Notes: a model not told the origin generated them from the letters alone. 64,000 nt of DNA from Blastococcus sp. (GCA_025965695.1 JAOPWM010000052.1:1-64000); one strand, 5' to 3'; shown: positions 9,135-64,000, counted from the first letter of the stretch. Made by a program: numbers and translations.

Positions 9135-11600
9135 ATGACCACGACCCACCGTGCGCAACCGGCGACCGCCGCCGCGGACGCGCCGATGACCAAACGGGAG
9201 ACGCTGGAGGCGCTCAGTGGCCTGCTGCTGGCGCTGTTCGTCGGCCTGCTGAGTTCCACGATCGTCGCCAACGCACTCCCGACGATCACCTCGAAGCTCG
9301 GAGGCACGCAGTCGCAGTACACCTGGGTGGTCACGGCCGCGCTGCTCGCCGCCACCGCGGCGACCCCCATCTGGGGCAAGCTCGCCGACCTCTTCAGCAA
9401 GAAGCTGCTGGTCCAGCTCGCCATCATCATCTTCGTCATCGGCTCGGCGCTGTGCGGCCTGACCCAGAGCATGGGGATGCTCATCGGCTTCCGCGTCATC
9501 CAGGGCGTGGGCATGGGCGGCCTGCAGGCCCTGGCCCAGGTCGTGATCGGCGCGATGATCCCGCCGCGCGAACGGGGCAAGTACTCCGGTTACCTCGGAG
9601 CCGTCATGGCGGTGGCCACCGTGGGTGGCCCCCTGCTCGGCGGCGTCATCGTCGACACCTCCTGGCTGGGCTGGCGGTGGACCTTCTACGTCTGCGTGCC
9701 CGTCGCCCTGGTCGCGCTGGCACTGCTGCAGAAGACGCTGCACCTGCCCGTCATCAAGCGGAAGGTGAGCATCGACTGGCTCGGCGCGAGCCTGATCACC
9801 GCGGCCGTCAGCGTGTTGCTCATCTGGGTCAGCTTCGCCGGCTCGAAGTTCGACTGGGTGTCCTGGCAGTCCGCGGTCATGGTCGGCGGCGGCGTGCTCG
9901 CCCTCCTGCTCACGATCCTGGTGGAGAGCCGCGTCGCGGAGCCGATCATCCCGCTGCCGATCGTGCGCGACCGCACCACCGCACTCGCGATCGTCGCGTC
10001 GGTCGCCGTCGGCGTCGGGATGTTCGGCGCCTCGGTGTTCTTCGGGCAGTACTTCCAGATCGCACGGGGCTGGTCGCCGACGAAGGCGGGCCTGGCGACC
10101 ATCCCGATGATCGGCGCGCTGCTCATCTCCTCGACGGTGTCCGGGCTGCTCATCACGCGGTTCGGGAAGTGGAAGGTGTTCCTGGTGTCGGGGACGGTCC
10201 TCATGGTCGCGGGCATGGGGCTGCTCGGAACGATCGACCACGCCACCAGCTATTCGCTCATGGCCTGCTACATGGCGCTGCTCGGACTCGGGGTCGGCAT
10301 GTCGATGCAGAACCTCGTGCTGGCGGTGCAGAACACCGTGGACATGCGGAACATCGGCGCCGCGTCGTCGGTGGTCACCTTCTTCCGCTCGTTGGGCGGT
10401 GCCGCCGGGGTCTCGGTGCTCGGCTCGATCGCCGCGACCCGCGTCAGCGCGCAGGTGGCCGACGGCCTGCGTGCCATGGGGCTGCCGGCTCCGCAGGGCG
10501 GTGGGTCGGAGTCGCTCGACCTCACGGTCCTTCCCGCGCCGGTCCAGCATCTCGTCCGGGGGGTGTACGGCGACGTCATCGGTGACGTGTTCGTCTACGC
10601 CGCGGCCATCTCCGCGATCGCGGTCCTCGCCGTCCTGTTCATCCGGGAGGTCCCGCTGCGGCGCAGCAACGCCCTGCAGGCCAAGGACGACGACACGGCC
10701 GACGACGTGCCCCGGAACTTCATGATCGAGGACGACGGCGACGAGCCCGTGGCGGTGACCGGTGAGCGGACGGACGCGGACGGCCGCCTCGCACCCGCCG
10801 CCGCACCCGCCGCCGCACCCGCCATGGCGAACGGCCTCACCGGGCGGATCGTGCTGGGCCGAGTGCTCCGCGGCGACGGCCGACCGCTGGCCGGTGCCTC
10901 CGTCACCCTCGCCGACGTGAGCGGACGGCAGGTCGACCGGGCCCGCTCGGGTGCCGACGGCGACTACCAGCTGCGCCCGACGGCCGGAGGGACCTACCTC
11001 CTGATCGCCTCGGCACCCGACCTGGCACCCAACGCCGCCATGGTTGCCCTGGCCGACTCTCCGGTGCGCCGCGACGTCGTGCTGGCCGGCAGTGCCCTGC
11101 TGCGCGGCAGCGTGCGCAGTGCCGAGGACGAGCCGCTGGCCGGCGCCCTGATCACCCTCACCGATGTCCAGGGGGACGTCGTCGGCAGCGCCGTCACCTC
11201 CGGCGACGGCCGGTTCGCCATCGGGGAGCTCCTCGCCGGGACCTACACCCTCGCGGGCCAAGCCCCGGGACACCAGCCGGTCGCGCTGACCGTCCAACTC
11301 GCCGACGGCGCCACGGTCGAGCGGGACGTCGTCCTGTTGGGCGGCGCCCGGGTGAGCGGCGTCGTGCGGGCGTTCAGCGACCAGCGGCCGCTCCCGGAGG
11401 CCACCGTCACCCTGCTCGACGACAGCGGGAACGTGCTGGCCACCACCTCCACCGGGGAGAAGGGCGAGTACGCCTTCGACGACCTCCTGGAGGGCGACTA
11501 CAGCCTGGTGACCAGCGGCTTCGCGCCGGTGGCTGCCGCCGTGCGCCTGCGGGCCGGGGCCGACCTCGAACATGACGTGACCCTCGGGGGCGCCCGATGA
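9135..11600 (+). CDS. DHA2-type MFS exporter fused to three carboxypeptidase-regulatory-like repeats
   Basis: Residues about 15-510 form a 14-helix drug:H+ antiporter of the DHA2 (EmrB/QacA) class, with PIWGKLADLFSKKLLVQL, RVIQGVGMGGLQALAQ and GPLLGGVIVDTSWLGWRW as landmark motifs. After a cytoplasmic linker containing an Ala-Pro run (AAAPAAAPA), about 270 residues form three tandem beta-sandwich repeats of about 80 aa. Each reads like GRVLRGDGRPLAGASVTLAD, then GADGDYQLRPTAGGTYLLIA, the CarboxypepD_reg/Cna-B-like pattern. The total of 821 aa is far longer than the usual 500. It overlaps the next gene by ATGA, and that gene begins with a fourth copy of the repeat. Exporter function is secure by family; the role of the tail is unknown. 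Confidence 0.93.
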   Translation: MTTTHRAQPATAAADAPMTKRETLEALSGLLLALFVGLLSSTIVANALPTITSKLGGTQSQYTWVVTAALLAATAATPIWGKLADLFSKKLLVQLAIIIFVIGSALCGLTQSMGMLIGFRVIQGVGMGGLQALAQVVIGAMIPPRERGKYSGYLGAVMAVATVGGPLLGGVIVDTSWLGWRWTFYVCVPVALVALALLQKTLHLPVIKRKVSIDWLGASLITAAVSVLLIWVSFAGSKFDWVSWQSAVMVGGGVLALLLTILVESRVAEPIIPLPIVRDRTTALAIVASVAVGVGMFGASVFFGQYFQIARGWSPTKAGLATIPMIGALLISSTVSGLLITRFGKWKVFLVSGTVLMVAGMGLLGTIDHATSYSLMACYMALLGLGVGMSMQNLVLAVQNTVDMRNIGAASSVVTFFRSLGGAAGVSVLGSIAATRVSAQVADGLRAMGLPAPQGGGSESLDLTVLPAPVQHLVRGVYGDVIGDVFVYAAAISAIAVLAVLFIREVPLRRSNALQAKDDDTADDVPRNFMIEDDGDEPVAVTGERTDADGRLAPAAAPAAAPAMANGLTGRIVLGRVLRGDGRPLAGASVTLADVSGRQVDRARSGADGDYQLRPTAGGTYLLIASAPDLAPNAAMVALADSPVRRDVVLAGSALLRGSVRSAEDEPLAGALITLTDVQGDVVGSAVTSGDGRFAIGELLAGTYTLAGQAPGHQPVALTVQLADGATVERDVVLLGGARVSGVVRAFSDQRPLPEATVTLLDDSGNVLATTSTGEKGEYAFDDLLEGDYSLVTSGFAPVAAAVRLRAGADLEHDVTLGGAR

Positions 11601-58396: not shown

Positions 58397-59611
58397 GTGA
58401 GCCGGTTCGGCTGGCGGGCCCGCCGGCCGACGCCCCCGCCCCAGGTGCCCGCCAGGAACGGCGGCCGCGTCTTCGTCGCCGAACCCGGCCAAGCGGCCGT
58501 GCGTGAGGTGACGGCGGATGTCGTTCTCCCGGCCCTGACCGCGACCTCCGTGCCGGAGGCGGTTGGCCCGGAGGCGGTTGGCGAGGTGCCGGAAGCTGAC
58601 GCGGGAGCCCCTTCGACACCTGCGAGCACCGGTCCGATCGTGGTGTCGTCCCCGGATGCGGCGGTCTCCGCCGTCGTGGCCGCGCTGTCGGGGTACCTGC
58701 GGCCGGTCGCCGAGATGCCCGACCCGACCGTCGTCGTGCTCCAAGTGGGCGACCGGACCCTGGGGCTCGGCAATTCGCGAGGGCTCGAGGCGATCGGCCC
58801 CTTCGACGCTGCCGAGCTGTTCGGCGGCCGGATCGACTGCGTCGTGCGCTTCCAGGTATGGGGTGCCGACGTCTCAGCCGCGGACACCGCGATGACCGAG
58901 CTGCAGGGTCGCCTGCTGGGCGCACGGGCGAGCTTGTTCCACGCCGGTTTCCTGACGTTCGACGGGGTCGCAGGTGCCTTGCCGGCCGGCGAGCGCGATG
59001 CCTGGTCGCGCACCGCGGACTACCACGCCCTCGTCGAGTACCACCTCGCCGCGGCACCGAGCGCAGGCAGCCTCATCGCCGCGATCCCCGTCGACGCGAA
59101 GCAGGAGGTGGCCGGCTCGCTCGTGAGCGAGCTGGCCACGGTCACCGGCGACACGGTCCGTTGGGATCTGGGCAGCGCGCCGGCGCTCGTGGTGCGCGGC
59201 CGGCGCAGCGTCGAGCAACTGGCGGTCACCGCGTTCCTGCCGGCACCGCAGCCGTCGGGGGCGGTCCGGATCCAGCGCACGCACGACGGCGCTACCGGGA
59301 TGCCGACGGACTACCCGACGCTGCCCGCGCTGCTGGCAGCGGTCGCCGACCCGGTCGCTCCCGAGCGCAACGGCCGGTACAGCTTCCCGTCGCTGGCCGC
59401 CTTCGTCGCGACCTTCGATGTCGCCGGCAGCCTGCTGCTCGCCGACCCGGATCACCCGGATCACACCGACGACTACGTGGTCGGGCAGCTGTCGCTCGAA
59501 CCGCCGATCCGGCTGACGGCAGCGACGGACCGACTCGAGATCTCGCTCCAGACGTCGCCGCTGGATCACCCGGGAGTGGTCTACCTGCGCCCAGCGCGAG
59601 CCCTGTACTGA
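58397..59611 (+). CDS. eCIS-associated protein, possible tail-terminator/cap-like
   Basis: This 404-residue protein directly precedes the sheath gene by 16 bases. After a disordered N-terminus (1-80), residues about 85-225 resemble tail completion proteins: IDCVVRFQVWGADVSAADTA, MTELQGRLLGARASLFHAGF, then DAWSRTADYHALVEYHLAAA. The pattern of an interface strand, a sub-unit helix and a final Y-ALxEY strand is like phage gpU or Pvc16-type caps. The C-terminal 180 residues are an additional domain of unknown type (TGDTVRWDLGSAPALVVRGR). This is a structural analogy, not a firm family match. Confidence 0.6.
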   Translation: MSRFGWRARRPTPPPQVPARNGGRVFVAEPGQAAVREVTADVVLPALTATSVPEAVGPEAVGEVPEADAGAPSTPASTGPIVVSSPDAAVSAVVAALSGYLRPVAEMPDPTVVVLQVGDRTLGLGNSRGLEAIGPFDAAELFGGRIDCVVRFQVWGADVSAADTAMTELQGRLLGARASLFHAGFLTFDGVAGALPAGERDAWSRTADYHALVEYHLAAAPSAGSLIAAIPVDAKQEVAGSLVSELATVTGDTVRWDLGSAPALVVRGRRSVEQLAVTAFLPAPQPSGAVRIQRTHDGATGMPTDYPTLPALLAAVADPVAPERNGRYSFPSLAAFVATFDVAGSLLLADPDHPDHTDDYVVGQLSLEPPIRLTAATDRLEISLQTSPLDHPGVVYLRPARALY

Positions 59612-59627
59612 CCAAGGAGAGCGACCC

Positions 59628-61307
59628 ATGACCGAGATGATCTTGCCGGGGACGTACATCCAGGTGCGGCCCGAGGGGCTCATCGTCCCCGGCCGCGTGT
59701 CGGTGGGGACGGTCGGCGTGGTGGGCACGGCCCAGAAGGGGCAGCTCAGCACGCCGACGGCGGTCAGCGGCTTCCTGGACGCCCGCGACCGGTTCGGCCG
59801 CTACGACCCATGGGTCGACGGAGCGAGCAACGAGCTCACCCTCGTTCGCGCGATCGAGATCGCGGCCGCCCACGGCGCGACGTCGATCATCGCCGTGCGC
59901 GTCTCCGCGGTGGACACCCATGGCGTTCCGACGGCGACGGCGGCGACCTACGCGCTCGGATCCACCGGCGGCGCGTGCGCCGAGCTGACGGCGAACTCCC
60001 CCGGGACCTGGGGCAACGACCTCACCGTCCAGGTCGTCGCCGCGGACGAACCCGCCTTCGTGGGTCCGGAGCAGCACGCCGGGAACGCCGCGGCGTCCTT
60101 GGCGCACAAGCCCGTGCTCAAGAGCGCGCGCAACCGCGTCCAGCTGTTCACCGCGGCCGACGGCGTGACCCGGCCACTGGAGGTCCTCTACGACGACCAC
60201 CCCGGGGCCCCGGGCAGGAATCAGGTCAAGATCGACCGTACGACGGGCGGCTTGGCGTTCAGTGGCGCGCTCGACGCAGCGGACAAGGTCACTGCCTGGT
60301 ACTCCGTGGACCCGGCCAGCGCGGCCACGGTCGTGCTGCGGTTCGAGAGCAGCACGGAGCGGTACACCGTCGTCAGCGGCGATGACCTCGTCGAGGACAT
60401 CACCGCCTCCGGTTGGGTGACGGCGACGAAGGGCCAGCACTCCGGGGAGCTTCCCACTCGGATGTCGGACCCTGCGGCATTCGGAACCGGCACGAACACA
60501 CGCGGGAGCAACGGCGAGTCCGCCGTCGACACCGACTACGAGGCCGCCCTCGCCACCCTGCTCAACGAGGACGCCCACATCATCGTGGGAGCCGGCCGGA
60601 CGACGACCTTCGCCGGCAAGCTGAACGGGCACTGCCAGCTCGCGAGCAGCGACGTCATCCGCCGAGACCGGACCGGGGTCGTCGGGGGCGCTCCCGGGAC
60701 CAGCCTGGACACCCTGCGCGGGCACAACATCGACAGCGACCGAGTGGTGCTCGTGGCACCCGGCATCGTCTTCGGCGACGCCGCCGCGGGCGTCGACGTG
60801 AGACTGCCCGGCGCGTACGCCGCAGCAGCCGTGGCGGGACTGCTCTCGAGCTATCCGCCTCATACCAGTCTGACCAACAAGGTGCTCTCCGTCGGCGATC
60901 TGGAGACGCGTTACACGCTGGCCGAGCTGACCCAGCTCGTGCAAGCACGCGTCCTGGCGCTGGAGGCCCGGCAGGGGATTCGTGTGGTCCAGGGCATCAC
61001 GACATCGACCAACACCGCCTGGCACCAGATCACCACCAGACGCATCGTCGACTACGCCAAGTTCGGCGTCCGCTCGGCGGCGCTCTCCTACATCGGTCTG
61101 CTGAACAACGAGCGCGTGCGCACCGCGCTGCGGACGACGATCACGAGCTTCCTCAACGGGATGGTCGACGACGAGATGCTCATCAGCTACACCCTCGACG
61201 TGACCGCGACCCGGGACCAGGAGCGCCAGGGAATCGTCGCCGTGACCATGGTCCTGCGGCCCACCTTCAGCATCGACTTCATCAAGGTCACGATGTTCCT
61301 CGAGTGA
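59628..61307 (+). CDS. Contractile injection system sheath protein
   Basis: The 559-residue sheath protein of the Afp2/Pvc2 class contracts around the inner tube. It begins MILPGTYIQVRPEGLIVPGR with the typical PGVYI-like N-terminal strand. TSTNTAWHQITTRRIVDYAK marks the C-terminal sheath domain, and SYTLDVTATRDQERQGIVAV and LRPTFSIDFIKVTMFLE its last strands, the usual handshake region. The ATG follows AAGGAGAG. A larger-than-usual middle insertion (about 140-290) would be surface-exposed. It is the first unequivocal eCIS gene in the window. Confidence 0.93.
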   Translation: MTEMILPGTYIQVRPEGLIVPGRVSVGTVGVVGTAQKGQLSTPTAVSGFLDARDRFGRYDPWVDGASNELTLVRAIEIAAAHGATSIIAVRVSAVDTHGVPTATAATYALGSTGGACAELTANSPGTWGNDLTVQVVAADEPAFVGPEQHAGNAAASLAHKPVLKSARNRVQLFTAADGVTRPLEVLYDDHPGAPGRNQVKIDRTTGGLAFSGALDAADKVTAWYSVDPASAATVVLRFESSTERYTVVSGDDLVEDITASGWVTATKGQHSGELPTRMSDPAAFGTGTNTRGSNGESAVDTDYEAALATLLNEDAHIIVGAGRTTTFAGKLNGHCQLASSDVIRRDRTGVVGGAPGTSLDTLRGHNIDSDRVVLVAPGIVFGDAAAGVDVRLPGAYAAAAVAGLLSSYPPHTSLTNKVLSVGDLETRYTLAELTQLVQARVLALEARQGIRVVQGITTSTNTAWHQITTRRIVDYAKFGVRSAALSYIGLLNNERVRTALRTTITSFLNGMVDDEMLISYTLDVTATRDQERQGIVAVTMVLRPTFSIDFIKVTMFLE

Positions 61308-61354
61308 CGCGCGGTCCCCCCGATCACGCATTTCTGTTCGAAAGGAGGAGCCGC

Positions 61355-61888
61355 GTGGCTCTCAACAACATCTACGTGGGCTCGCACGGCACGCTCGGAA
61401 TCGCCGTCGAAGGGAGCCCGGCCCAGCAGGCCGATTTCACGGCGATCAGCGACGCCTACACGTCCGCGATCGTCGGCCGGGTCACCGCGGTCGAGGTGTG
61501 CGTCCAGACCGAGCTCGAGGAGTTCTTCGAGATCGGTGCGCGCGACGTCAGCACGATCTCGACCGGGAACGTCCACGTCAGCGGCAGCATCGGGCGCGCG
61601 TACATGAACGGAGCGCTGCTCTTCCTGCTGCTGGGCCGCGGCGCCGCGGAGAACGGCCTGACCACGCTCCAGCCGAGCTTCGTGCTGAACCTGACGCTGC
61701 GCGATCCCCAGATCCCCACCAACGCCCTGAAGGTCAACGTGTTCGGCGTGAAGTTCGAGACATGGGGGTTCAGCGTTCCGCAGGAGAGCTTCGTGATGGA
61801 GCACCTGCGGTTCAAGGCGACGCGGGTCGGCCTGCTGGACAACGAGGCAGGCAAGGACATCGCGGTCGCCTTCCCGGCGCCGGCGTAG
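61355..61888 (+). CDS. Contractile injection system inner tube protein
   Basis: This 177-residue tube protein has the Hcp/gp19-like layout: IYVGSHGTLGIAVEGSPAQQ, FFEIGARDVSTISTGNVHVS, GSIGRAYMNGALLFLLLGRG and FGVKFETWGFSVPQESFVME. Hexamers stack to form the tube inside the sheath. The GTG follows AAAGGAGGAG, one of the strongest ribosome sites in the window, fitting its high copy number. It is 47 bases downstream of the sheath gene. Confidence 0.9.
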   Translation: MALNNIYVGSHGTLGIAVEGSPAQQADFTAISDAYTSAIVGRVTAVEVCVQTELEEFFEIGARDVSTISTGNVHVSGSIGRAYMNGALLFLLLGRGAAENGLTTLQPSFVLNLTLRDPQIPTNALKVNVFGVKFETWGFSVPQESFVMEHLRFKATRVGLLDNEAGKDIAVAFPAPA

Positions 61889-61904
61889 GCGAGCGGGACC
61901 GGCC

Positions 61905-62390
61905 ATGACACTCACCGCCGAGGACCTGCTCGGCGGCGCCGGCGTGACGCACGACGTCGCGGTCCCGCCGGCGTTGCTGACGCCGGGCGACCGGGCGAGC
62001 GACGGGACGGACGACGGCCCGACCACGGTCGTCCTGCGCCCGCTGACCGTGCGCGACCTCCAGCAGATCGCGCGAGCCGGGCAGGACGACGACGGGCTGT
62101 CGGCGGCACTGATGATCCAGCAGTCCCTGGTCCGGCCCGCCCTCGGCTTCGAGGAGGTGACCCGGCTCCCGGCCGGGCTGGCCCGGTTCCTCGTCGAGCG
62201 GATCAACGAGATCAGCGGGGTGGACGCCGGGCGTGACGAGCTGGCGGAGCTGGTGCAGACGCCGCTGGCACGCGCCTGCTTCATCCTCGCCAGGGAGTTC
62301 GGCTGGACGCCGGAGGAGGTGAGCGGGATGACGATCGGCCAGATCCTGCTCTACCTCGAGATGTCGCGGGCCGGTGAATCCGACCGATGA
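61905..62390 (+). CDS. eCIS tail-assembly-chaperone-like protein
   Basis: The 161-residue acidic protein ends in FILAREFGWTPEEVSGMTIG, then QILLYLEMSRAGESDR, a pattern often found just after tube genes in actinobacterial CIS clusters. Its size, position and helical Leu-rich C-terminus suggest the equivalent of the phage assembly chaperone. An internal segment PTTVVLRPLTVRDLQQIARA resembles a DUF6760-adjacent region. The start ATG is 16 bases after the tube stop. Precise function is inferred from position. Confidence 0.65.
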   Translation: MTLTAEDLLGGAGVTHDVAVPPALLTPGDRASDGTDDGPTTVVLRPLTVRDLQQIARAGQDDDGLSAALMIQQSLVRPALGFEEVTRLPAGLARFLVERINEISGVDAGRDELAELVQTPLARACFILAREFGWTPEEVSGMTIGQILLYLEMSRAGESDR

Positions 62391-63778
62391 CATTTCCCTT
62401 CCCGGCGGCGCAGCGCGCAGCGGTGCTGCTTCGCACGAACCGGAGACTGCTGCTCTGGTCGCGTGCACTGTCGGGGCCGGTGCGGCGAGCCCGCCGGACG
62501 TCGCTGCTGTGCGCCTGGGTGCAGGAACCACTCCAGCCACCACGGTTGCGACAGGGGTCCCTCCTCGGCAGTTGCCTCGCTGACATCGTCGGTGACGCCC
62601 GTGCCGGGCGCGGCAGAGCGGACCCCGAGCCCTGGCCGGTCGGCCCTGGGATCCCCCGTCCCGCGCCGCGGGCGCGTGCCGGTGCACGAGCGATCCGCGA
62701 CCCCGCCGGCGGCCGGCCCGGCGGATCTCCCCCGCCCGTGGAGCCCCCGTACGCGGAGCCCGCGCCTGCGGAGCCCGGGCCTGCGGCGCGTACGCCACAT
62801 CCCTCCCGGCCGCAGGTATTCCCGCCGCGGGCCTTCCGGCGACAGGCATCCCCGCCGCACGCTCCGCCGCCGCACGCCCCCCCGCCGCAGGCCCCCCCGC
62901 CGCAGGCCTCGACGTCGCAGGCCTCCCGGCCTCCGGGGCCACGGCCGGTGGGCGGTCACGGGACGGTCGACGGGGCGACGCTCCGCCGATTGGCGGGACC
63001 GGCCGTTCCGGCGCCGGTGATGCCGGCGCGGCGGATGGTGCCTCCGTCGGCAGCGGTGCGCCGGCCCCGGCCCGAGCGCTGCTCACCGGAGGCCCCGCTC
63101 GCGCCGGCCACGGCGCGGTCGGCACGTCACCTCAGCGGGCGGACCGGAGCCGCAGATGCGTCACGGTCCGCGATCCTCCGACCAGGCCGCCTCCACGTCG
63201 ACGGACCCGTGGCGCCGTCGGACATCCTGTTCCTCCGCGCTGGTCCCGCAGTGACCGGCGACCGGTCCGGACGCGTGCGTCCCGGCCGGTCGGGCGCCGA
63301 TCCCGAACGGCGGCGCAGACGGCGCGCCGATGCCGGCCCTCCGGTGACGGCCGCGTCCGGACCGGTCCGGGAGGGCTGGTCCCCCACAGCCACCGGCGCC
63401 GACGGCACACGGCCGCCCGAGACGCCGGTCACCCGAACGGCGCAGAGGTCCGCTGTGGCAACGGCTGCGCCGGTCTTCGGGCCCAGGGGGCCCGGGGGCA
63501 ACCGCGGCACGCCCCCGCGCGACGACGTCCCCGCGCCGGTCGTGCCGCCGACGGCGTCCGAGCGACTCGGACCGGCGCCCGTCCTGACCCCGTCCCAGCC
63601 GGCGATGGTCGCCCCGGAACCACCGGCAGGCCAGACCATGCCCGTTGCCGCCGGCACCCTGCGGCGAGCAGCCGCTCGGGACGGGGCGCTGCCGGACTTC
63701 CTGGACGACGACGAGCTCACCCGGCGGATGGCGCAGGTGCTGCAGGACGAGGCCCGCCGCTATGGGATCGAGGTCTGA
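62387..63778 (+). CDS. Proline-rich eCIS-associated protein, reading frame uncertain upstream
   Basis: The ATG overlaps the previous stop (ATGA) and the C-terminus is convincing: ALPDFLDDDELTRRMAQVLQ, then DEARRYGIEV, the sort of helical tail that anchors CIS accessory proteins. Residues about 100-420 are Pro/Ala/Arg-rich, including a PPHAP/PPQAP repeat. The first 100 residues in this frame are Arg/Trp-rich and less protein-like than the frame starting GTG 62374 (VNPTDDISLPGGAARSG), so one or more indels, or a small overlapping gene, are possible. Only the C-terminal part is firmly supported. Confidence 0.55.
   Translation: MTFPFPAAQRAAVLLRTNRRLLLWSRALSGPVRRARRTSLLCAWVQEPLQPPRLRQGSLLGSCLADIVGDARAGRGRADPEPWPVGPGIPRPAPRARAGARAIRDPAGGRPGGSPPPVEPPYAEPAPAEPGPAARTPHPSRPQVFPPRAFRRQASPPHAPPPHAPPPQAPPPQASTSQASRPPGPRPVGGHGTVDGATLRRLAGPAVPAPVMPARRMVPPSAAVRRPRPERCSPEAPLAPATARSARHLSGRTGAADASRSAILRPGRLHVDGPVAPSDILFLRAGPAVTGDRSGRVRPGRSGADPERRRRRRADAGPPVTAASGPVREGWSPTATGADGTRPPETPVTRTAQRSAVATAAPVFGPRGPGGNRGTPPRDDVPAPVVPPTASERLGPAPVLTPSQPAMVAPEPPAGQTMPVAAGTLRRAAARDGALPDFLDDDELTRRMAQVLQDEARRYGIEV
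62852..62911 (+). repeat. Four 15-bp tandem repeats coding PPHAP/PPQAP
   Basis: Units CCGCCGCACGCTCCG, CCGCCGCACGCCCCC, CCGCCGCAGGCCCCC and CCGCCGCAGGCCTCG follow directly. In the annotated frame they encode PPHAP, PPHAP, PPQAP, PPQAS. Fifteen-base units keep the frame during expansion or contraction. Confidence 0.8.
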
Positions 63779-63780
63779 CC

Positions 63781-64000
63781 ATGCGCCCGATGCTGGACGA
63801 CCTGGAGCTGCCCCAGGTGCAGGAGATCGGTACGTACGACCGGCGCGCGCTGGCCGAGCACCAGGCCCCCGGCGGGGACGGCAGCCATCTGCAGGACCTG
63901 GGTCGCCGCCCGACGCGGGTCGCGCTGTGGGGAGTCGCGACCGGTGACGACGCTCCGGCGTTCGTGGACAAGCTCGAGGCGAAGTTCCGCGCGGGAACGC
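63781..64000 (+). CDS. eCIS baseplate-type protein (start only)
   Basis: The first 73 residues read MRPMLDDLELPQVQEIGTYD, then RRALAEHQAPGGDGSHLQDL and GRRPTRVALWGVATGDDAPA. The LxxLGRRPxRVxLxGV segment is typical of the phage DNA-circularisation-N-like / tube-baseplate adaptor proteins near the start of baseplate operons. The ATG lies two bases after the previous stop, so it is co-transcribed with the sheath and tube. The gene runs past the window edge, so its full length and domains are unknown. Confidence 0.75.
   Translation, partial: MRPMLDDLELPQVQEIGTYDRRALAEHQAPGGDGSHLQDLGRRPTRVALWGVATGDDAPAFVDKLEAKFRAGT

What the first reader, a model, noticed from the sequence alone, without database searches (positions are those of the whole stretch)
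58397..64000. Start of an extracellular contractile injection system (eCIS) locus
Sheath, tube, chaperone-like and baseplate-type genes sit in tight order with strong ribosome sites. No capsid, portal or terminase genes are nearby, which argues for an eCIS rather than a prophage tail. The locus leaves the window before the ATPase, tape-measure, fibre and effector genes, so target and cargo are unknown.
Basis: partly seen in the sequence, partly recalled or inferred. Interest (0 to 1): 0.8.

Follow-up and report, generated by a model that had tools for sequence, protein, structure and literature searches.

The report
Uncharted phage-tail-like protein injection system
An environmental actinobacterium carries a complete, headless, phage-tail-like 'syringe' gene cluster from a rare branch seen in at least seven bacterial phyla; sister branches keep Rhs toxin-like genes beside the needle hub, so it is probably a protein-injecting machine, although it lacks the motor gene that a published survey uses to recognise such systems.

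Summary
The window ends inside a contractile-tail cluster; the contig continues to 85,152 bp, so the whole cluster could be read: 18 co-directional genes, 58397-84701. It has sheath, tube, tail-assembly chaperone, tube initiator, hub, spike, PAAR-like tip, gp25, baseplate J, tail protein I, fibre-like proteins and a GH5 enzyme without a signal peptide. No capsid, portal or terminase gene was found; upstream genes are metabolic. So it is a contractile injection system (CIS), not a prophage. 'eCIS' is only partly right: no AAA+ (Cis15) ATPase, DUF4255, DUF4157 or gp19-type tube was detected, the order is phage Mu-like, and the sheath lies far from ATPase-bearing CISs. Relatives (Frankia, Eremiobacterota, Chloroflexota, Accumulibacter, Desulfobacula, Thiothrix, myxobacteria) keep the same core. 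In a sister clade the slot between tape measure and hub holds Rhs-repeat proteins; here it holds a tube-initiator + OmpA/peptidoglycan-binding + HExxH fusion. Two Eremiobacterota relatives carry a Cis15-like ATPase beside PAAR. The putative tape measure is 137 aa (about 1,140 aa in the sister clade). Best reading: a divergent, apparently uncatalogued CIS lineage with hub-associated cargo. Target, release and cargo activity are untested.

The parts
58397..59611 (+). g01, 404 aa, putative tail terminator (by position before the sheath); true start may be near 58.6 kb
   Evidence: No Pfam, NCBIfam or PHROG match; homologues in the same position in Frankia and Eremiobacterota, and a 171-aa counterpart before the sheath in Desulfobacteraceae
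59628..61307 (+). g02, contractile sheath, 559 aa
   Evidence: Phage_sheath_1C 4.2e-12; PHROG_279 tail sheath 3.1e-38; 73% identical to Frankia
61355..61888 (+). g03, tube protein, 177 aa, GTG start
   Evidence: Conserved in 22 loci directly after the sheath; AlphaFold model plus Foldseek hits to tail tubes and Hcp
61905..62390 (+). g04, tail assembly chaperone (E/41/14 type), 161 aa
   Evidence: Phage_TAC_7 2.6e-4, below curated cut-off; conserved position
62387..63778 (+). g05, 463-aa proline-rich protein with a family-conserved C-terminal motif (...EARRxGI...)
   Evidence: C-terminal motif shared with same-position genes in Frankia, Thiothrix, Paraglaciecola, Desulfobacula and others; no Pfam match
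63781..64000 (+). g06, DNA_circ_N tube initiator (180 aa), cut by the window end; runs to 64323 on the contig. Beyond the window (same coordinates): g07 64333-64746 (137 aa, tape-measure position), g08 64761-68882 (slot fusion, 1373 aa), g09 68896-69408 (HEAT-like), g10 69405-70466 (hub), g11 70463-71263 (spike), g12 71273-71608 (PAAR-like), g13 71618-72097 (gp25), g14 72094-73695 (baseplate J), g15 73701-78521 (tail protein I + repeats), g16 78579-79502, g17 79507-83538 (fibre-like), g18 83604-84701 (GH5)
   Evidence: DNA_circ_N 4.7e-4 for the whole protein, at the cut-off; downstream genes

Best explanation
This is a complete chromosomal gene cluster for a phage-tail-derived contractile injection system, from a lineage separate from Afp/Pvc/Streptomyces-type CISs and laid out like the tail operon of phage Mu. 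Inferred working: the DNA_circ_N tube initiator (g06) starts the tube (g03) on a hub-spike-PAAR tip (g10-g12) ringed by gp25, J and I wedge proteins (g13-g15); the sheath (g02) polymerises around the tube, helped by the chaperone (g04). Fibre-like proteins (g15 repeats, g16, g17) bind a target surface, the sheath contracts, and the tube with its hub-associated cargo is driven through the envelope. Cargo is probably not loaded by a Cis15 ATPase but built into the hub region: the slot between tape measure and hub holds g08, which begins with a second tube-initiator domain and continues with OmpA and PG_binding_1 domains (peptidoglycan attachment) and a C-terminal HExxH stretch (putative zinc metalloprotease). 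In sister clades the same slot holds Rhs-repeat toxin-like proteins. The GH5 enzyme at the 3' end, without a signal peptide, is a possible second cargo. Shown by computation: parts list, synteny, slot contents, absence of head genes and of a Cis15 match. Inferred: assembly, firing, cargo status and target.
For: Whole cluster read on the contig, co-directional, bounded by a minus-strand gene. Family matches for sheath, J, gp25, base_V spike, DNA_circ_N, OmpA, PG_binding_1 and GH5. Hub profile matches CIS and T6SS VgrG-type hubs and Mu gp44 in the PDB (best E 9.6e-18); PAAR motif in 2 of 4 g12 homologues; tube fold. Same core order in relatives from seven phyla. RHS_repeat 1.8e-21 to 3.1e-40 in the slot of seven relatives; g08 conserved in Frankia with the HEIGH motif, truncated before it in Eremiobacterota. 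Cis15-like ATPase directly after PAAR in two Eremiobacterota relatives, which ties the lineage to protein-loading CISs. Flanking DNA 83-88% identical to same-genus genomes, so the contig is not misbinned. Mu gene order; Mu gp43 is the tube initiator and bears a LysM module (PMC11915804).
Against: No expression or particle data. The tape-measure role of g07 rests on position and weak helical similarity (49% probability). The HExxH domain could not be modelled (pLDDT 28) and matches no Pfam peptidase. Rhs proteins are in the sister clade, not here; no toxin domain is proven in this cluster. R-type tailocins also lack heads and an ATPase.
Confidence: 0.7

Rival explanations
1. A canonical Afp/Pvc/Streptomyces-type eCIS whose ATPase lies elsewhere or was lost recently; effectors would be loaded into the tube by the usual route.
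For: Two relatives (Eremiobacterota) have a Cis15-like ATPase in the cluster; sheath, PAAR-like tip, gp25, J and hub types are shared with eCIS.
Against: Sheath separated from 12 ATPase-adjacent CIS sheaths by a branch of 6 changes per site with 100/100 support (such a long branch makes exact placement unsure). Tube and terminator match no eCIS family; DUF4255, DUF4157 and AAA not found. DNA_circ_N and TAC_7 genes are Mu-like. Most relatives have no Cis15-like gene near the cluster.
Confidence: 0.12
2. An R-type tailocin: a defective Mu-like tail that kills related bacteria by puncturing the membrane, with no protein cargo.
For: Mu-like order, chaperone and DNA_circ_N genes, no head genes, no ATPase.
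Against: No lysis cassette recognised in the cluster; PAAR-like tip; slot proteins with Rhs repeats in relatives or enzyme-like and cell-wall-binding domains here; Cis15-like ATPase in two relatives; spread over seven phyla with sporadic presence.
Confidence: 0.13
3. Remnant of a Mu-like prophage tail that is decaying.
For: Phage-derived parts in phage order.
Against: All 18 reading frames are open; orthologues in Frankia are collinear and 64-79% identical for tube, g07 and g01; no head or integration gene found; close relatives nearly absent from 50,697 phage records.
Confidence: 0.05

Closest known systems
Tail operon of myophage Mu (genes K-L-M-41-42-N-P-45-46-47-48-S)
   Same: Nearly the same order: terminator, sheath, tube, E/41/14 chaperone, DNA_circ_N initiator, hub, spike, gp25-like, J-like, I-like, fibre.
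   Different: No head genes; initiator precedes a tiny tape-measure candidate; extra slot protein, HEAT-like protein, PAAR-like tip and GH5.
Afp/Pvc-type and Streptomyces-type eCIS (subtypes I and II)
   Same: Headless contractile cluster with sheath, hub (matches AlgoCIS, tCIS and Pvc8/Afp8 hubs), PAAR-like tip, gp25 and J; an HExxH motif in or near the cargo position, as DUF4157 has.
   Different: No Cis15 ATPase, DUF4255, DUF4157 or gp19-type tube detected; Mu-like initiator and chaperone; very distant sheath.
Type VI secretion Rhs/VgrG-PAAR effector delivery
   Same: VgrG-type hub and PAAR-like tip; in sister clades an Rhs protein encoded next to the hub gene.
   Different: No membrane complex or ClpV in the cluster; has tail-type wedge, initiator, chaperone and fibre-like genes.
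R-type tailocins
   Same: Headless phage-tail operon without ATPase.
   Different: No lysis genes recognised; slot gene with enzyme-like or Rhs content.

Membership tests
Contractile injection system (any) | Sheath, tube, hub/spike and gp25/J baseplate in one cluster without head genes | tested here: met
eCIS (Geller 2021 core domains, PMC8213781) | Sheath, GPW_gp25, Baseplate_J, GPD-type hub, PAAR | tested here: met
   Sheath and J above cut-off; gp25 below Pfam cut-off but PHROG 4.7e-18; hub by profile 9.6e-18; PAAR only through homologues
eCIS (Geller 2021 core domains) | Phage_T4_gp19-type tube and DUF4255 terminator | tested here: not met
   No Pfam match for g03 or g01; tube identity rests on fold only
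eCIS (Geller 2021; Li 2025, PMC12210884) | AAA+ ATPase (Cis15/Afp15) | tested here: not met
   None on contig C293; no Cis15-like protein in the 81.5%-complete MAG. Present in two Eremiobacterota relatives
eCIS (Geller 2021) | DUF4157 domain | tested here: not met
   No match in the 18 genes; g08 has a different HExxH stretch
eCIS | Particles released and active outside the cell | not testable with these tools
   Needs microscopy and functional assay
Mu-like phage or prophage | Head, portal and terminase genes with the tail genes | tested here: not met
   None downstream; ten upstream genes sampled are cellular
R-type tailocin | Lysis genes with tail genes, no protein cargo | tested here: inconclusive
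   No lysis gene recognised; cargo only inferred
Type VI secretion system | TssJLM membrane complex and ClpV | tested here: not met
   None among the 18 cluster genes; not searched genome-wide

The most novel reading that the evidence does not exclude
A broad CIS lineage beside Afp-type eCIS and T6SS in which cargo is built into the hub region (tube-initiator fusions here, Rhs proteins in sister clades) instead of being loaded by an ATPase, and in which the window's clade makes very short particles because its tape measure has only about 137 residues.
Probability: 0.35. Interest if true: 0.8.

Novelty: new variant of a known kind. Interest (0 to 1): 0.62.

Why it matters
A published metagenome survey discards CIS clusters that have fibres and tape measure but no Cis15 ATPase as phage or tailocin (Li 2025, PMC12210884), so a lineage like this would be missed by design. 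It occurs in at least seven phyla, and a sister clade pairs an Rhs-repeat protein with the hub, which points to cargo delivery without a loading ATPase. The Eremiobacterota members, which add a Cis15-like ATPase to the same core, make the question of what that ATPase is needed for testable. A tape-measure candidate of 137 versus about 1,140 residues within one family also gives a natural test of length control.

Tried and rejected
Single-protein sheath scan of viral contigs found no relative; the plasmid collection had none. Profile searches of the PDB for g01, g03, g06 and g12 gave nothing usable. The AlphaFold model of the g08 C-terminal domain failed (two-sequence alignment, pLDDT 28), so no peptidase family is assigned. 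A PHROG/Pfam screen of flanking and accessory genes in three relatives gave tail-fibre, collagen and housekeeping families and no head family among the 25 families listed, but more families matched than were shown. Misbinning was considered and rejected: flanking DNA matches the genus at 83-88%. The early idea that the lineage always lacks the ATPase was dropped when the Eremiobacterota clusters were read. Literature searches found no description of these loci; Geller 2021 and the 2024 toxin-classifier paper do not mention Rhs in their main text. Supplementary locus lists (dbeCIS, eCIStem) could not be opened, so 'uncatalogued' is not proven.

Full report
WHAT IS THERE. The window is bases 1-64000 of an 85,152-bp contig (C293) of a 4.09-Mb, 81.5%-complete actinobacterial metagenome-assembled genome. 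Fetching the rest of the contig let me read the whole cluster. It runs from 58397 to 84701 on the + strand, genes overlapping or separated by short gaps, and is followed by a minus-strand collagen-like gene that runs off the contig end.

PARTS. g01 (404 aa) putative terminator; g02 sheath; g03 tube; g04 tail assembly chaperone; g05 proline-rich protein with a family-conserved C-terminal motif; g06 DNA_circ_N protein; g07 137-aa helical protein; g08 1373 aa; g09 170-aa HEAT-like; g10 hub; g11 spike (Phage_base_V 1.5e-5); g12 PAAR-like; g13 gp25; g14 baseplate J (2.9e-15); g15 1606 aa with a baseplate-like N-terminus (phrog_1160, 1.2e-4) plus repeats of roughly 110-120 residues; g16 and g17 fibre-like by position, g17 with a helix-hairpin-helix domain; g18 GH5-family enzyme (2.3e-33). 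GH5 starts 65 bp after g17 and no signal peptide is evident in its N-terminus. The hub profile matches CIS and T6SS hubs and Mu gp44 in solved structures. The PAAR call rests on homologues. The tube call rests on position, conservation in 22 loci and fold comparison at moderate confidence.

NOT A PROPHAGE. No capsid, portal or terminase match appears among the 18 genes. Ten upstream genes sampled are a selenium-binding protein, oxidoreductases, transporters, an asparaginase, an amylase, a P450 and a GAF-domain protein. Flanking DNA is 83-88% identical to genomes of the same genus, while the tube profile finds the family in only 1 of 115 genomes of the taxonomic family (this one) and 3 of 397 of the phylum. 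It is therefore rare and probably acquired horizontally. Only distant phage sheaths (about 25% identity over half the protein) were found among 50,697 phage records.

THE LINEAGE. A sheath profile found 21 named loci in GTDB genomes, a lower bound because the scan uses short patterns: Frankia (73% identity), Candidatus Eremiobacterota, Chloroflexota, Humibacillus, Actinopolymorpha, Nitriliruptoraceae, Rubrobacter, Accumulibacter, Azohydromonas, Pyxidicoccus and another myxobacterium, Desulfobacteraceae including Desulfobacula, Thiothrix, Paraglaciecola and a Gemmatimonadetes MAG: seven phyla. They keep sheath-tube-chaperone in order, followed by the proline-rich protein, initiator, tape measure, slot, hub, spike, gp25 and J with local rearrangements; in Eremiobacterota the gp25-J-I-fibre block is on the opposite strand. 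In the sheath tree, 22 family rows and 12 sheaths that have a Cis15-like ATPase within about 12 kb (identified) fall on opposite sides of a branch of 6 changes per site with 100/100 support; the two phage rows sit on very long branches and are not placed reliably.

THE SLOT. In Chloroflexota, Humibacillus, Actinopolymorpha, Pyxidicoccus, Accumulibacter and two IMG/VR contigs, the gene between tape measure and hub encodes an Rhs-repeat protein (E 1.8e-21 to 3.1e-40 in the seven scanned). Their cores end in a conserved YEHELRHxNQY...ERDAREH-like stretch, and in Humibacillus and Actinopolymorpha about 870 and 920 further residues follow. Desulfobacteraceae have an unrelated 969-989-aa protein there. 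In the window and Frankia the slot protein is g08: a second DNA_circ_N domain, OmpA (4e-8), PG_binding_1 (3.7e-11), and a C-terminal HEIGHVLTxK...GHY...NLM stretch that resembles a metzincin active site (motif reading only; no Pfam match, and the model failed). The Eremiobacterota version stops short of that domain. Mu gp43, a DNA circularisation protein, is the tube initiator and carries a LysM peptidoglycan-binding module (PMC11915804), so OmpA + PG_binding_1 on g08 is plausibly the same job done by other domains.

THE ATPASE. PF00004 has no hit on contig C293 (all 17 hits of the MAG lie on other contigs). Searching the MAG with the Eremiobacterota Cis15-like protein finds only two weak matches (E 3e-11 and 3e-5) confined to the AAA domain. 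Most other relatives also lack one near the cluster. In both Eremiobacterota relatives a full-length Cis15-like ATPase directly follows PAAR, and proteins of this family lie beside canonical actinobacterial CIS sheaths. Either the ATPase was ancestral and lost, or it was gained in Eremiobacterota; the data do not decide. A published filter that requires Cis15 would drop these clusters (PMC12210884).

TAPE MEASURE. Relatives with Rhs slots have a helical protein of 1135-1150 aa between initiator and slot, and Desulfobacteraceae 1170-1176 aa, strikingly constant. In the window, Frankia and Eremiobacterota that position holds 137-143 aa. Homology between the two is weak, so the tape-measure role is positional inference. 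If it holds, the particles should be very short, or length is set some other way.

VERDICT. Shown: a complete headless contractile-tail cluster, its parts, its conserved family, slot contents and missing eCIS markers. Inferred: function as an injector, hub-built cargo, peptidoglycan attachment, protease activity, GH5 as cargo (eCIS toxins tend to lie just downstream of the core genes, PMC11297309). Unknown: target, release, expression.

Noticed in passing
G531:C4:301773-303776 (L063:16774-18777) and G541:C55 (L092:10933-13548): Two Eremiobacterota relatives carry a Cis15-like AAA+ ATPase directly after PAAR, and each genome holds a second such ATPase elsewhere, which suggests a second CIS.
   Followed up: partly
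L043, L044, L045, L047, L051, L056, L059, L061: Rhs-repeat proteins in the slot share a conserved HELRHxNQY...ERDAREH-like stretch at the end of the Rhs core, an HExxH-type motif.
   Followed up: partly
L059, L060, L061: IMG/VR 'viral' contigs of 19-24 kb carry this CIS family, two of them with Rhs slot genes; they may be bacterial CIS loci filed as viruses.
   Followed up: no
window 9135-11597: MFS transporter with C-terminal carboxypeptidase-regulatory-like/SdrD-like repeats, an unusual fusion.
   Followed up: no
contig C293 84702-85152 (beyond the window), minus strand: Collagen-like Gly-X-Y protein with a hydrophobic C-terminal tail, cut by the contig end.
   Followed up: no
L058 (Pyxidicoccus), 10001-10381: A 129-aa open frame matching only the sheath N-terminus, apparently a fragment of a second copy.
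   Followed up: no
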